Shown piece after piece: positions 13,928-18,074 of a stretch of 31,426 nt of DNA; position 1 is the first letter of the stretch, and each line of letters starts with the position of its first letter. The DNA comes from a virus. Position numbers and translations under genes: made by a program. Under the pieces are notes generated by a model. The model made no database searches. It saw only the letters and a program-made list of their open reading frames with translations, and was not told where the DNA came from. The DNA lies in the IMG/VR virus record IMGVR_UViG_3300042868_004208, positions 1 to 31,426 of that record; one strand, 5' to 3'.

Positions 13928-14287
13928 TCAGTTGAGGAATTTTAAACGATACAACGTTTTGTCAATCAACGATGCGATTTCGTCGATGATATTCTGAAGT
14001 TCAGAATCTTGTGGCAAGTCTTCCCTGGCTTCTTTGACAAACTCAGACAACGATTCCAGGTATTTCACTGGATTTTTGGCGTTGTGGAATTCTTCAGGGT
14101 ACTTTTTGATTTTTTCGTATTTGCCTTGGAACGCTTCGGCAAAGTCGTCGGCCAAGTCAATGATTTCGACGTAATACTTCCCCAGCGCCTTATGTTCCGA
14201 ATACGAATCGGTCGATAAGTGCATGAAATGTGTCACCGTGCTGCTGTGCAGCAATGCGGCGATAAATTCGGATGCGTCGTTTTCCAT
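13928..14287 (-). CDS. Conserved phage helical protein (DUF5856-like), 119 aa
   Basis: Starts MENDASEFIAALLHSSTVTH and continues FMHLSTDSYSEHKALGKYY, EIIDLADDFAEAFQGKYEKI and a long C-terminal helical part. The H-x-x-H-L-x-[ST]-x-S-[YF]-[AS]-E-H-K-A-L-G-x-Y-Y pattern resembles an uncharacterised phage family (DUF5856, from memory) and recalls the metal-binding helices of ferritin/Dps proteins. The frame is open upstream to 14374, but that extension would run through the terminator at 14301-14330; ATG 14287 is the better start, although no clear Shine-Dalgarno is seen. First gene after that terminator. Confidence 0.75.
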   Translation of the reverse strand: MENDASEFIAALLHSSTVTHFMHLSTDSYSEHKALGKYYVEIIDLADDFAEAFQGKYEKIKKYPEEFHNAKNPVKYLESLSEFVKEAREDLPQDSELQNIIDEIASLIDKTLYRLKFLN

Positions 14288-14300
14288 GTGGCGATGATAA

Positions 14301-14330
14301 ATGAAAAAATCGGGGGGTGGTAGCCCCCCG
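14301..14330 (-). terminator. Rho-independent terminator after the replication/nin block
   Basis: On the minus strand a 7-bp all-GC-type stem (CGGGGGG with CCCCCCG, arms 14324-14330 and 14311-14317) with a 6-base loop is followed by ATTTTTTC. It begins 10 bases beyond the stop of the HNH gene. It separates early replication genes from the late block on the same strand. Confidence 0.88.
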
Positions 14331-14340
14331 TCAAGGTGGC

Positions 14341-14700
14341 TCAGTTCTGGCAACTGTCGATAAGCCGCGTCCATTCTCGTTCATCGGGTAGCGGTACGTC
14401 AACAGGCCACTGGCCGCTGTCAACCAGGTTTTGAACCGTTTTCATGTGTGCTGCATACCAGGCTTGCTGACGCTCTCGTTTTAACCACTGAACGCCTTGG
14501 TCGATGTCGTGGTGGCAACTCATACAAAGCGCGGCCACCAGGTTGTCGTCGGCCTTGATGCCGCGGCCCTTGCCCCCTCCCCAATTGGTGTGCGCCGCCT
14601 GGACAAAATGCCCCGACCCGCACAACTGGCAATCCAGGCTGGCCACCAGGCGCAACAACTTTTTGCTTCGCACGTAAGGGTGTTTGGGAACGGCTGTCAT
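14341..14700 (-). CDS. HNH-type nuclease, YbcO/Ref-like
   Basis: 119 residues. The core DCQLCGSGHFVQAAHTNWGG, then GRGIKADDNLVAALCMSCHH, gives a C-x2-C ... A-H ... G-x-K-x-D-[DN] ... C-x2-C-H array, expected for a zinc-stabilised beta-beta-alpha-metal nuclease. The A-H-x-N-x-G-x-G-K-G-x-G-x-K-A-x-D part recalls YbcO (DUF1364) and the P1 Ref family, both tied to lambdoid recombination genes. The start overlaps the NinB stop by ATGA. It probably cuts DNA during recombination or repair of replicating phage DNA. Confidence 0.8.
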   Translation of the reverse strand: MTAVPKHPYVRSKKLLRLVASLDCQLCGSGHFVQAAHTNWGGGKGRGIKADDNLVAALCMSCHHDIDQGVQWLKRERQQAWYAAHMKTVQNLVDSGQWPVDVPLPDEREWTRLIDSCQN

Positions 14701-15693: not shown

Positions 15694-16079
15694 TTCGGCA
15701 TCCTCATTTGTTTTGTCATTTCGCGCAGCATGGCCAAGGCTTTTTCTTTGGCTTCCTTGGCTGCAATCTGTTCGTGAACGGTCGGCTGGCGCGTCACCAG
15801 CGTGTGGGGCTTGTCAGGAATGCGCGGGCCGTCGTTCAACAGCTTGGCGAACGCCAGAGCCGACGGCGGGCGGTCGGGGTTCATGTGCTTCAACGCGTAA
15901 TCCATTTTTGGCCGGTACGTCAGGCCGCGCCCGCATTCATCCATCCATGCCTGGCGAATGATGGCCGGATCAATGTCGCGCCAATGGTTGGCAAAGGTGG
16001 CGCCGTAAATGGCGTTCATCTTGGTAAAGATGTAATCAAAGCCGCTGTCGGCATCACAAAAGTCGTTTGCGTTCCACAT
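15690..16079 (-). CDS. Replication protein P-like (possible helicase loader partner)
   Basis: 129 residues. SGFDYIFTKMNAIYGATFAN and HWRDIDPAIIRQAWMDECGR, then RPKMDYALKHMNPDRPPSAL with AFAKLLND, follow the pattern of short phage P-like proteins: a Y-G-x-x-[FW]-x-x-x-W domain, then P-P-S-x-x-x-F. Lambda P loads the DnaB helicase. Here the known P-type AAA part is missing, so the match is only to the helical domain. The C-terminus is a charged helix. It overlaps the O-like gene by 26 bases, as O and P do in lambda. Confidence 0.65.
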   Translation of the reverse strand: MWNANDFCDADSGFDYIFTKMNAIYGATFANHWRDIDPAIIRQAWMDECGRGLTYRPKMDYALKHMNPDRPPSALAFAKLLNDGPRIPDKPHTLVTRQPTVHEQIAAKEAKEKALAMLREMTKQMRMPK

Positions 16080-16758
16080 CGGACACCTCCACGGTTTGTT
16101 CAGGTTTCGCCCAAAAGTTTGCTGACGCTGGTTTTGGTGTGGCCAGGCCGCGGGTAAGTGCCGCCATTTGCGTCAAACGGGCCTCTGACGCGGTTTTCTT
16201 GGCTGTCTGTTGCCGACGTACCCAATTGCGCCAAGTCGCTGTCCAATCGGTTTTTACGCCCTTTTGGCCAGGCTGGGCAATCCAGTAGTCGCGGAACCCG
16301 TCGAACGTTTCCCTGGGGTCAAGTTCGGGCCGGTGTTGGCGACAAAAACCAACCCATTCGTCAGACAACGAAAAGTCAGTTGGCAAGCGCGTCCCGCGCT
16401 GCGTTTGCTTTCCCTCTCTCTTTGTCTCTGTCTCTATCTCTGTCTCTGTCTCTAGTAGATCATCTTGATATTCGGTTGATATCAAACTGATATCGTCTTG
16501 CTCCAGCCAATGAGACAACTTGTTTAAGCATTCAAAAGTTTGTTTTTCAGACATACGAAGCCGAAAAGCCAACGTTTTTGTGTTTGGTAGGTTGCCGTCG
16601 TCTTCACTGGCAATAAGCCAACACATAACCAGCACTTTACTTGCGGTCGCGTCCAGTTCGTGCCATTCAATGTCGTCAAGAATGTCACGGTACAGTTTTA
16701 CCCAAGGCGGTTTGCGGTCTTTGAAATGTTGAAATTTCGACCAATTTTTGATCTTCAT
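16054..16758 (-). CDS. Replication initiator O-like protein
   Basis: 234 residues. The N-terminal ~100 residues (WVKLYRDILDDIEWHELDAT, then LVMCWLIASEDDGNLPN and LAFRLRMSEKQTFECLNKL) look like the winged-helix domain of phage replisome organisers. A charged low-complexity linker of Glu/Thr pairs follows (from TCTCTR repeats). The C-terminal part has FDGFRDYWIAQPGQKG and DWTATWRNWVRRQ, found in phage O/DnaT-like proteins. It likely binds origin repeats and recruits the helicase with the P-like protein. Candidate iterons lie inside this gene, as the lambda origin lies in gene O. An AAGGG site precedes the ATG. Confidence 0.75.
   Translation of the reverse strand: MKIKNWSKFQHFKDRKPPWVKLYRDILDDIEWHELDATASKVLVMCWLIASEDDGNLPNTKTLAFRLRMSEKQTFECLNKLSHWLEQDDISLISTEYQDDLLETETEIETETKREGKQTQRGTRLPTDFSLSDEWVGFCRQHRPELDPRETFDGFRDYWIAQPGQKGVKTDWTATWRNWVRRQQTAKKTASEARLTQMAALTRGLATPKPASANFWAKPEQTVEVSDVERKRLL
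16425..16454. repeat. Hexanucleotide repeat (TCTCTR)5
   Basis: Five perfect TCTCTG or TCTCTA units in tandem; a further pyrimidine-rich stretch extends back to about 16412. Read on the minus strand they code for alternating Glu and Thr/Ile in the O-like linker. The six-base unit keeps frame if copy number changes. It lies 10 bases from the iterons. Confidence 0.9.
16465..16497. repeat. Three 11-bp iterons, candidate replication origin
   Basis: TTGATATTCGG, TTGATATCAAA and CTGATATCGTC follow one another at exactly 11-bp spacing (16465, 16476, 16487), sharing YTGATAT; two contain GATATC. An AT-rich segment lies at about 16515-16555 and a hexamer repeat on the other side. Repeats plus AT-rich DNA inside an initiator gene is the lambda-type origin layout. 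Function is inferred. Confidence 0.6.
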
Positions 16759-16861
16759 GTCGCACCCTTAAAGTTCCACCCAAAAAAGAAACATCGGCGG
16801 GCGGGGTGGATTCGCTTTTCAGTCGGGTAATTAGTCCGACCTAGCCGTGTTTCAAACAATT
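16759..16861. other. Short gap between the O-like and Cro-like genes
   Basis: Holds the O-like gene's AAGGG site and one weak inverted repeat (GTCGG ... CCGAC, about 16824-16842) without a T-tract. No small gene or clear promoter is seen. The Cro-like and O-like genes are therefore probably one transcript. Confidence 0.5.
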
Positions 16862-17020
16862 CTATCCCTTGAACCACTTGGGCCGCAAGGCCCGCAACTG
16901 CCACAACCGCGCCTGGGGAACCCTGTCGCCCCATTGGCTGATCGCCTGGCGCGTGATGCCCAGCAACTTGGCCAACGCTACGGCGCTGCCCGCTTTTTCA
17001 ATTGCTTGATGTGTTTCCAT
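16862..17020 (-). CDS. Cro-like helix-turn-helix repressor, 52 aa
   Basis: METHQAIEKAGSAVALAKLL is followed by GITRQAISQWGDRVPQAR and a short tail ending PKWFKG. This is a Cro/YdaS-type HTH: A-x-x-x-G-[ST]-x-x-x-L-A-x-x-L-G-[IV]-[TS]-x-x-A-[IV]-S-Q-W, with [IV]-P-x-x-R after it. The frame is open to 17116, but upstream codons lie in promoter DNA; ATG at 17020 is where homology begins. It lacks a Shine-Dalgarno; the promoter puts transcription start at or within a base of the ATG, so translation is probably leaderless. It likely binds the 12-bp operators at 17031, 17097 and 18019, repressing its own operon (leading to replication genes) and both plus-strand promoters. Confidence 0.85.
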   Translation of the reverse strand: METHQAIEKAGSAVALAKLLGITRQAISQWGDRVPQARLWQLRALRPKWFKG

Positions 17021-17026
17021 GGTCGC

Positions 17027-17055
17027 ATGGTAAGCCAACTTTCGTTTTTTTGCAA
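17027..17055 (-). promoter_or_regulatory. Leftward promoter for the cro-like/replication operon (PR-like)
   Basis: TTGCAA (17050-17055), 17-bp spacer, TACCAT (17027-17032). The cro-like ATG begins 7 bases after the -10 box, where transcription normally starts. A second, weaker candidate (TTTACA, 17 bp, TACAAA) lies further upstream and would give a leader, but it lacks an operator. Confidence 0.65.
17031..17042 (-). promoter_or_regulatory. Operator copy 1, AAAGTTGGCTTA
   Basis: Read on the minus strand. It overlaps the first two bases of the leftward -10 box, in the same register as the copies at 17097 and 18019. Half-site GCTTA is perfect; the other half is AAAGT. Confidence 0.7.
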
Positions 17056-17083
17056 CACCTTGAAAAATATTTTGTAAGGGGGC

Positions 17084-17112
17084 TTGACATGGGTGTAAAG
17101 CTGGCTTAATAT
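17084..17112 (+). promoter_or_regulatory. Strong sigma-70 promoter of the early operon (PL-like)
   Basis: Consensus TTGACA (17084-17089), exactly 17 bp, then TAATAT (17107-17112). It reads into the LPD29 gene after a ~43-base leader carrying AAAAAGGAAATTG as ribosome site. It is divergent from the cro-like promoter. Confidence 0.9.
17097..17108 (+). promoter_or_regulatory. Operator copy 2, AAAGCTGGCTTA
   Basis: Occupies the 3' half of the spacer and the first two -10 bases, so a bound repressor would block RNA polymerase. It differs from copy 3 by one base. Confidence 0.75.
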
Positions 17113-17161
17113 TCACTCATGCCCTAACACATTGCACGGGGTCTTTAAAAAGGAAATTGTG

Positions 17162-17740
17162 ATGACTACATATCTCTCTTGCGCTGACACTGCAAAACTC
17201 GTTCGCGCTGCTCTCAAAGAAACATTCCCTGGCGTCAAGTTCAGCGTCAAGTCCAGCGTTTACGCTGGCGGCGCCAGCATCAACGTGTCGTACATCGACG
17301 GCCCTTGCGGTGGCCAGGTTGAAGCGGTCGCCAAGGCTTTCCAGGGCGCTTACTTTGACGGCATGACCGATTACAAGGGCAGCAACTACAACACCCTTGA
17401 CGGCCAGGCTGTTCGCTTCGGTGCTGACTTCATCTTTGTGAACCGCAAGTTCACCGCGCCAATTTTGACCAGCATCGCCAATGAAGTTTGCCGCCGGTTT
17501 GGGTTTGCCAATGAAGTCGTGATTGTTGACAACGGCTTTGGTGCTTACATCAACAAAATCAGCGACAACGCCGACACCGCTGCGCGGGGATACACAACCT
17601 ACGACGTGGATCGCGTGATCCGCGACGCTTGCAGCGAATACAGCATGGACGACAGCGCACCAAGCGCAACATTGGCCCGCGTCGCCTTTGCCGGTGACGA
17701 CGGTTACGGATACAACAGCGTTGGCCGTTTGGCCGCATAA
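17162..17740 (+). CDS. LPD29-type protein, 192 aa, first gene of early operon
   Basis: Begins MTTYLSCADTAKLVRAALKE, followed by TFPGVKFSVKSSVYAGGASI and NVSYIDGP; then FQGAYFDGMTDYKG. The order A-K-x-[VI]-R-x-x-L-x-x-x-F-P-x-x-[KR]-F-S-V-[KR]-x-x-x-Y-[AS]-G-G-x-S-I-x-V-x-[WY]-x-D-G-P identifies the large polyvalent protein-associated domain 29 (from memory). C-terminal residues 120-192 lack a recognised domain. Start ATG 17162 has AAAAAGGAAATTG before it; an upstream in-frame ATG at 17132 does not. LPD domains are found in polyvalent proteins of phages and plasmids thought to act on entry into a new host. First place behind the strongest promoter suggests an immediate-early role against host functions, which is inference. 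Confidence 0.8.
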   Translation: MTTYLSCADTAKLVRAALKETFPGVKFSVKSSVYAGGASINVSYIDGPCGGQVEAVAKAFQGAYFDGMTDYKGSNYNTLDGQAVRFGADFIFVNRKFTAPILTSIANEVCRRFGFANEVVIVDNGFGAYINKISDNADTAARGYTTYDVDRVIRDACSEYSMDDSAPSATLARVAFAGDDGYGYNSVGRLAA

Positions 17741-17859: not shown

Positions 17860-18021
17860 GTGAGAATTTTTAAAGTGCATCGGGCTGGCAAAGTTTTCTT
17901 TGCCGCCTACCTGGGCAGCGTTTACATCGAACGCGCCAGCGAAAAAGAATTGCGTGAAGCAATAGCAGTCCGTGAAAGATTTGCAAAAATATTTGCGGAA
18001 CCTGTTGACATTGCCGGTTAA
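17860..18021 (+). CDS. Small protein, 53 aa, GTG start
   Basis: Begins MRIFKVHRAGKVFFAAYLGS and continues VYIERASEKELREAIAVRER. A short beta strand pair followed by a helix is likely. The start is GTG with GGGGAA at 10 bases upstream of it. The 3' end of the gene contains the -35 box and half of the operator of the next promoter, so repressor binding at 18019 lies over its stop codon. Unknown function. Confidence 0.65.
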   Translation: MRIFKVHRAGKVFFAAYLGSVYIERASEKELREAIAVRERFAKIFAEPVDIAG

Positions 18022-18034
18022 GCTGGCTTACAAT
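18005..18034 (+). promoter_or_regulatory. Second early promoter
   Basis: TTGACA (18005-18010), 18-bp spacer, TACAAT (18029-18034). It lies over the end of the 53-residue gene and reads into the gene at 18075. It resembles the 17084 promoter in its operator and in its leader. Confidence 0.87.
18019..18030 (+). promoter_or_regulatory. Operator copy 3, TAAGCTGGCTTA
   Basis: The only copy with perfect inverted half-sites: TAAGC, two central bases, GCTTA. It overlaps the -10 box by two bases exactly as in copies 1 and 2. Confidence 0.75.
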
Positions 18035-18074
18035 CGAACCATGCCGGAAACGGTCTTTTAAAAAGGAAATTGAA

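What the first reader, a model, noticed from the sequence alone, without database searches (positions are those of the whole stretch)
17018..17055. Leaderless mRNA predicted for the cro-like repressor
The promoter TTGCAA-17-TACCAT ends 7 bases before the ATG, and no Shine-Dalgarno precedes it, in a genome where most starts have strong ones. This mirrors lambda cI transcribed from PRM, which is leaderless, but here it is on the Cro-like gene. Leaderless translation would link repressor level to ribosome state or infection stage.
Basis: partly seen in the sequence, partly recalled or inferred. Interest (0 to 1): 0.55.

Follow-up and report, generated by a model that had tools for sequence, protein, structure and literature searches.

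The report
Conserved leaderless Cro-type phage repressor gene
In a group of uncultivated phages, the gene for a small Cro-type repressor sits exactly where its promoter should start transcription, so its messenger RNA very probably begins with the start codon itself; the layout recurs in many relatives but has known precedents in phages lambda and PY54.

Summary
The minus-strand promoter TTGCAA(17055-17050)-17-TACCAT(17032-17027) lies 6 nt before the ATG (17020) of a 52-aa P22_Cro-family gene, so the predicted +1 is the A of the ATG; there is no Shine-Dalgarno (SD). In the window alone this is weak: the upstream TTTACA-17-TACAAA promoter scores slightly higher (8.9 vs 8.6). Relatives decide it: of 67 non-redundant upstream regions, 55 have a -10-like hexamer ending exactly 6 nt before the ATG, and 0 of these 55 have an SD at SD distance. 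Three other gene sets from the same loci give 0 of 37, 0 of 31, 0 of 21. The upstream promoter is not conserved. Of 8 relatives without the layout, 6 have an SD. A P22-like operator (AAG-N4-CTT) overlaps the -10 of this promoter and of both rightward promoters, suggesting autoregulation plus early repression; binding is untested. Leaderless phage repressors are known (lambda cI, PaaR2), and PY54 cro was mapped as leaderless, so this is a new, widely conserved member of a known kind. No 5' end was mapped; the link to ribosome state is untested.

The parts
16862..17020 (-). Cro-like repressor gene, 52 aa, ATG at 17020
   Evidence: Pfam P22_Cro 48.7 bits (cut-off 30.2), also YdaS_toxin 36.6 (cut-off 30); start aligned with the first Met of most relatives
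17027..17032 (-). -10 hexamer TACCAT, ending 6 nt before the ATG
17050..17055 (-). -35 hexamer TTGCAA, 17-nt spacer
17020..17020 (-). predicted transcription start, the A of the ATG
   Evidence: inferred from the 6-nt distance, the same as in lambda cI and PY54 cro; not mapped
17031..17041 (-). operator-like AAGTTGGCTTA, overlapping the -10
   Evidence: AAGYTGGCTTA occurs exactly 3 times in the window, each over a -10
17098..17108 (+). operator-like AAGCTGGCTTA overlapping the -10 of the divergent promoter
18020..18030 (+). operator-like AAGCTGGCTTA overlapping the -10 of the second rightward promoter
17076..17085 (+). possible further operator AAGGGGGCTT between the divergent promoters
   Evidence: one of 10 AAG-N4-CTT sites in the window; weak on its own
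17071..17099 (-). alternative upstream promoter TTTACA-17-TACAAA, thought not to be the main one
   Evidence: score 8.9 in the window but not conserved
17084..17112 (+). divergent promoter TTGACA-17-TAATAT; predicted +1 at 17119 begins ATGCCCTAA
18005..18034 (+). second rightward promoter TTGACA-18-TACAAT; predicted +1 at 18041 begins ATGCCGGAAACGG
17162..17740 (+). first gene of the divergent operon, LPD29 domain, with SD
   Evidence: Pfam LPD29 E 2.8e-24; SD -5.8
16054..16758 (-). replication-initiation-like gene downstream of cro, with SD
   Evidence: PHROG primosomal and replication proteins; SD -6.3

Best explanation
The gene encodes a P22-Cro-type DNA-binding repressor whose own promoter places transcription start on the A of its start codon, so the mRNA is leaderless and translation starts at the 5'-terminal AUG without an SD. 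The repressor probably binds AAG-N4-CTT sites overlapping the -10 of its own promoter and of the two rightward promoters, so it turns down itself (with the replication gene behind it) and the rightward early genes. Those early transcripts share the promoter and operator type but have a leader with an SD; the leaderless start probably keeps repressor synthesis low. Shown: the anatomy, its conservation and the absence of an SD. Inferred: the start site, repressor binding, low output.
For: 55 of 67 non-redundant upstream regions (101 of all 115 distinct ones) have a -10-like hexamer ending exactly 6 nt before the ATG; 1 ends at 5 and 3 at 7 nt; no other distance from 0 to 59 nt exceeds 12 of 67. 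17 different -10 hexamers and best -35 spacers of 15-19 nt occur while the 6 nt stays. At SD distance (-17..-4), 0 of the 55 reach -5 kcal/mol; of the 8 with no -10 at 5-7 nt, 6 do, L203 has -4.7 and L079 none. Controls from the same loci, -10 at 5-7 nt: LPD29 gene 0 of 37, replication gene 0 of 31, gene 15690 0 of 21. 43 of 55 have an in-frame stop within 60 nt upstream. Operators: 3 exact copies in the window, each over a -10; AAG-N4-CTTA starts at -21 in 33 of 55 (tally); the P22 operator region holds AAGTGTTCTT and AAGATGACTT. Lambda cI and RACE-mapped PY54 cro show the same 6 nt.
Against: No 5' end is mapped for this or a near relative. In the window the upstream promoter scores slightly higher and the frame is open upstream to a GTG at 17116. 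In the wider SD window -20..-1, 21 of 67 regions reach -5; apart from the SD-led ones these are mostly GGTGG of the operator or G runs touching the ATG, which I judged not to be SDs. The script preferred an ATG near the expected start, so ATG use is partly built in. Of 7 named relatives viewed by eye (30 records matched), 6 show an SD-like leader and Vibrio phage K242 is unclear, so the layout is not family-wide. 18 of 55 lack any AAG-N4-CTTA within 100 nt upstream and 4 have one only elsewhere.
Confidence: 0.8

Rival explanations
1. cro is transcribed mainly from the upstream promoter TTTACA-17-TACAAA (17099-17071) and has a leader of about 44 nt without an SD.
For: Scores 8.9 against 8.6 in the window; similar matches in near relatives: L018 8.2, L003 7.2, L007 6.7.
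Against: Not conserved: 5 of 55 reach 8 at gap 46-54 (median 3.1; shuffles 2.5, 4.2% reaching 8), against 43 of 55 for the 6-nt promoter. Its hexamers overlap or adjoin the operator-like sites at 17076 and 17098, so the match may be a by-product. Such a leader would carry no SD.
Confidence: 0.1
2. The real start codon lies further upstream and the protein is longer, so the ATG at 17020 is internal.
For: The frame is open to a GTG at 17116 in the window.
Against: 43 of 55 relatives have an in-frame stop within 60 nt upstream, often the TAA or TAG that begins the -10 itself.
Confidence: 0.03
3. The promoter-like match beside the ATG is a coincidence of an AT-rich, operator-bearing intergenic region.
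For: 18 sites of equal or better score, itself included, occur in the window.
Against: Exactly 6 nt in 55 of 67 regions with differing hexamers; best promoter at 6 nt in 47 of 67 against 1.7% in shuffles.
Confidence: 0.03

Closest known systems
Phage PY54 cro
   Same: Cro-type repressor with a leaderless mRNA mapped by RACE (PMC4488713, passages read); CATAAT-6-ATG
   Different: PY54 has a cI gene beside it; its Cro binds one site, OR3, and the authors think it apparently does not repress itself; here an operator-like site lies in the cro promoter
Phage lambda cI from PRM
   Same: TAGATT-6-ATG; leaderless repressor mRNA (stated in PMC8630535 and PMC4488713, passages read)
   Different: cI is the lysogeny repressor; here a 52-aa Cro-type protein in front of a replication gene
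Phage P22 cro and c2
   Same: same Pfam family as Cro; AAG-N4-CTT in the operator region; annotated c2 transcript start leaves a 4-nt leader
   Different: P22 cro has a leader between its promoter and start; P22 has a c2 repressor gene beside it
PaaR2 of an E. coli O157:H7 cryptic prophage
   Same: leaderless prophage regulator shown by RACE and N-terminal sequencing, divergent from ydaS (PMC8630535, passages read)
   Different: there the regulator of a toxin-antitoxin operon is leaderless; here the P22_Cro/YdaS-like protein itself is
-10 motif adjacent to open reading frames in Deinococcus-Thermus
   Same: -10 directly before the ORF for leaderless expression (PMC12340547, listing and passages seen)
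   Different: a common mode in a bacterial phylum; here one gene of a phage group whose other genes mostly have an SD

Membership tests
Leaderless mRNA | transcription starts at, or within a few nt of, the start codon | tested here: inconclusive
   predicted from the 6-nt distance, kept in 55 of 67; no 5' end mapped
Leaderless mRNA | AUG start codon | tested here: met
   ATG in the window and in 55 of 55, with the caution that the script preferred ATG
Leaderless mRNA | no SD upstream | tested here: met
   window -1.7 kcal/mol; 0 of 55 at -5 or better in -17..-4
Leaderless mRNA | translated from the 5'-terminal AUG by 70S ribosomes | not testable with these tools
   needs toeprinting or reporter assays
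P22 Cro family (PF14549) | profile match above the curated cut-off | tested here: met
   48.7 bits against 30.2; YdaS_toxin also passes its cut-off
P22 Cro family (PF14549) | binds operators with AAG-N4-CTT | tested here: inconclusive
   sites are there by sequence and resemble those in the P22 operator region; binding not tested; the defining role of this motif is my inference
Lambda-type cI/cro lysogeny switch | second repressor and integration genes | tested here: not met
   no Phage_integrase (PF00589) match; the only HTH_3 match is this gene, below cut-off; none of 30 window proteins scanned with PHROGs matched an integration family. Serine integrases were not searched for on their own, further ORFs were not scanned, and the linear record may be incomplete

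The most novel reading that the evidence does not exclude
The whole early control region is built around 5'-terminal AUGs: the repressor is leaderless, while the early transcripts it faces also start with AUG but carry a short hairpin and an SD. Shifts in the ribosome pool (IF2/IF3 ratio, 70S availability) would then change repressor and early proteins in different ways, making repressor level a readout of the translation state during infection.
Probability: 0.12. Interest if true: 0.7.

Novelty: new member of a known kind. Interest (0 to 1): 0.42.

Why it matters
Leaderless phage repressors are known from a few single cases. Here the layout recurs in a large set of related environmental phages, with SD-led relatives to compare, so the value of a leaderless start can be studied by comparison. 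One intergenic region offers a natural pair: similar promoters and operators, one leaderless output and one SD-led output.

Tried and rejected
Unstructured, A-rich 5' coding end as a leaderless signature: the first 36 nt of cro fold more weakly than the rest in 53 of 54 leaderless relatives long enough to test, but SD-led genes do the same (LPD29 37 of 37, replication gene 28 of 31, gene 15690 20 of 21), so it was dropped. The A fraction at +4..+30 is 0.49 in cro, 0.44 in the replication gene, 0.27 and 0.29 in the other two; not used.

Start-stop mini-ORF in the divergent leader: AUG-CCC-stop was seen in 18 of 18 leaders with a +1 AUG, of 37 LPD29 leaders. In the wider set the third codon is a stop in 104 of 146, so a strict start-stop rule is rejected. 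The +1 AUG is kept in 146 of 151 leaders, but those were selected by a hairpin pattern and by a -10 at the fitting distance.

Protein tree of 66 rows: 54 of 102 columns, 24 of 62 inner branches open; the leaderless label needs 4 changes (starred branches force at least 3; shuffles 6.8 on average, 0 of 500 as low), so it is clustered, but a single origin is not shown.

Rows dropped before the counts: two matches without a start codon (L039 and one of two pieces of L128); matches with under 100 nt upstream (number not printed); exact repeats, leaving 115; then regions over 85% identical in 60 nt, leaving 67. The window itself falls in the cluster of L003. Several of the 67 are distant HTH proteins (L079, L094, L120, L121, L164, L172) that may not be orthologues; five of these six count on the leaderless side. 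The SD of the four regions with a -10 at 5 or 7 nt was not tallied.

Full report
The finding concerns window 17018-17055, minus strand. The sequence shows TTGCAA at 17055-17050, a 17-nt spacer, TACCAT at 17032-17027, six bases, and ATG at 17020-17018. With the usual distance from -10 to transcription start, the start is the A of the ATG. The gene (16862-17020) encodes 52 aa and matches Pfam P22_Cro at 48.7 bits (cut-off 30.2) and YdaS_toxin at 36.6 (cut-off 30). Its SD duplex is -1.7 kcal/mol against a median of -5.9 over 41 starts of the window.

Taken alone the promoter is ordinary: 18 sites on both strands of the window, itself included, score at least 8.6, among them an upstream one for the same gene, TTTACA-17-TACAAA, with 8.9. 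I therefore collected relatives from viral contigs with three proteins of the region (the last two lists are capped at 80 loci each). From 218 loci, 115 distinct upstream regions of cro relatives were obtained and reduced to 67 at no more than 85% identity over 60 nt.

A hexamer with at least 4 of 6 matches to TATAAT, A at position 2 and T at position 6, ends exactly 6 nt before the ATG in 55 of 67 regions (101 of 115 before reduction); 1 more ends at 5 nt and 3 at 7 nt; no other distance from 0 to 59 nt exceeds 12. The best-scoring promoter lies at exactly 6 nt in 47 of 67, against 1.7% in mononucleotide shuffles. The hexamers differ (17 kinds of -10; best -35 spacers of 15 to 19 nt), so the distance is kept while the promoter sequence changes. 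At SD distance (-17..-4) none of the 55 reaches -5 kcal/mol; of the 8 regions with no -10 at 5-7 nt, 6 do, L203 has -4.7 and L079 none. In the wider stretch -20..-1, 21 of 67 reach -5; apart from the SD-led ones these are mostly GGTGG of the operator or G runs touching the ATG. Three other gene sets from the same loci have a -10 at 5-7 nt in 0 of 37, 0 of 31 and 0 of 21, and an SD of -5 or better in 37 of 37, 21 of 31 and 21 of 21.

The upstream promoter is not conserved: 5 of 55 reach a score of 8 in its region (median 3.1; shuffles 2.5, 4.2% reaching 8), while the 6-nt promoter reaches 8 in 43 of 55. A longer protein is unlikely, since 43 of 55 have an in-frame stop within 60 nt upstream, although the window itself is open to 17116.

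AAGYTGGCTTA occurs exactly three times in the window, each time over a -10: at the cro promoter (17031-17041), the divergent promoter (17098-17108) and a second rightward promoter (18020-18030). AAG-N4-CTTA starts at -21 from the ATG in 33 of the 55; 18 have none within 100 nt upstream and 4 have one only elsewhere (tally). The operator region annotated for P22 contains AAGTGTTCTT and AAGATGACTT, with the same spacing. This supports, but does not show, that the protein represses its own promoter and both rightward promoters. Since the 6-nt layout also occurs where this operator is missing, the leaderless start does not depend on that operator.

Context: the gene behind cro resembles replication proteins. 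The rightward genes begin with an LPD29-domain gene and include an Erf-like annealing protein. Portal, terminase, head, holin and endolysin families were recognised. There is no Phage_integrase match, and the only HTH_3 match is this gene, below cut-off. The record is linear and may be incomplete.

Precedents: the lambda cI start shows TAGATT-6-ATG. In PY54 both cI and cro mRNAs start at the AUG by RACE (PMC4488713, passages read), and its cro shows CATAAT-6-ATG. PaaR2 is another leaderless prophage regulator (PMC8630535, passages read). Of seven more distant named relatives viewed by eye (of 30 records matched), six show an SD-like leader and Vibrio phage K242 is unclear. I saw no report of this conserved layout in the listings of six paper searches; that library holds open-licence papers only.

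It is a new and widely conserved member of a known kind. The suggested link to ribosome state or infection stage remains a hypothesis.

Noticed in passing
17119-17161 and 18041-18074, + strand: Both rightward transcripts are predicted to start with AUG, followed by GCC[C/G], a short hairpin-like stretch ending in GG(G)TCTTTT, and an SD. In 151 distinct leaders selected by this pattern, +1,+2 is AT in 146, and the third codon is a stop in 104 of those 146. Lambda PR likewise shows ATGTACTAA 6 nt after its -10. 5'-terminal AUGs on SD-led mRNAs are a described class in E. coli (PMC4965119, abstract read).
   Followed up: partly
17076-17085: A further AAG-N4-CTT site lies between the divergent promoters, so the region may hold three operators, somewhat like the OR region of lambda.
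   Followed up: no
L044, L045, L040: Relatives at about 60% identity have an SD directly before cro and no -10 at 5-7 nt, so the two arrangements replace each other among relatives.
   Followed up: partly
window 16413-16759: Part of the replication-like gene is about 70% identical in DNA to Xanthomonas phage PBR31 and Limnohabitans phage DC33, among 5 phage records matched; at most a hint at the host.
   Followed up: no
window 13928-14374, minus strand: Protein matching PHROG 858, annotated as starvation-inducible transcriptional regulator.
   Followed up: no
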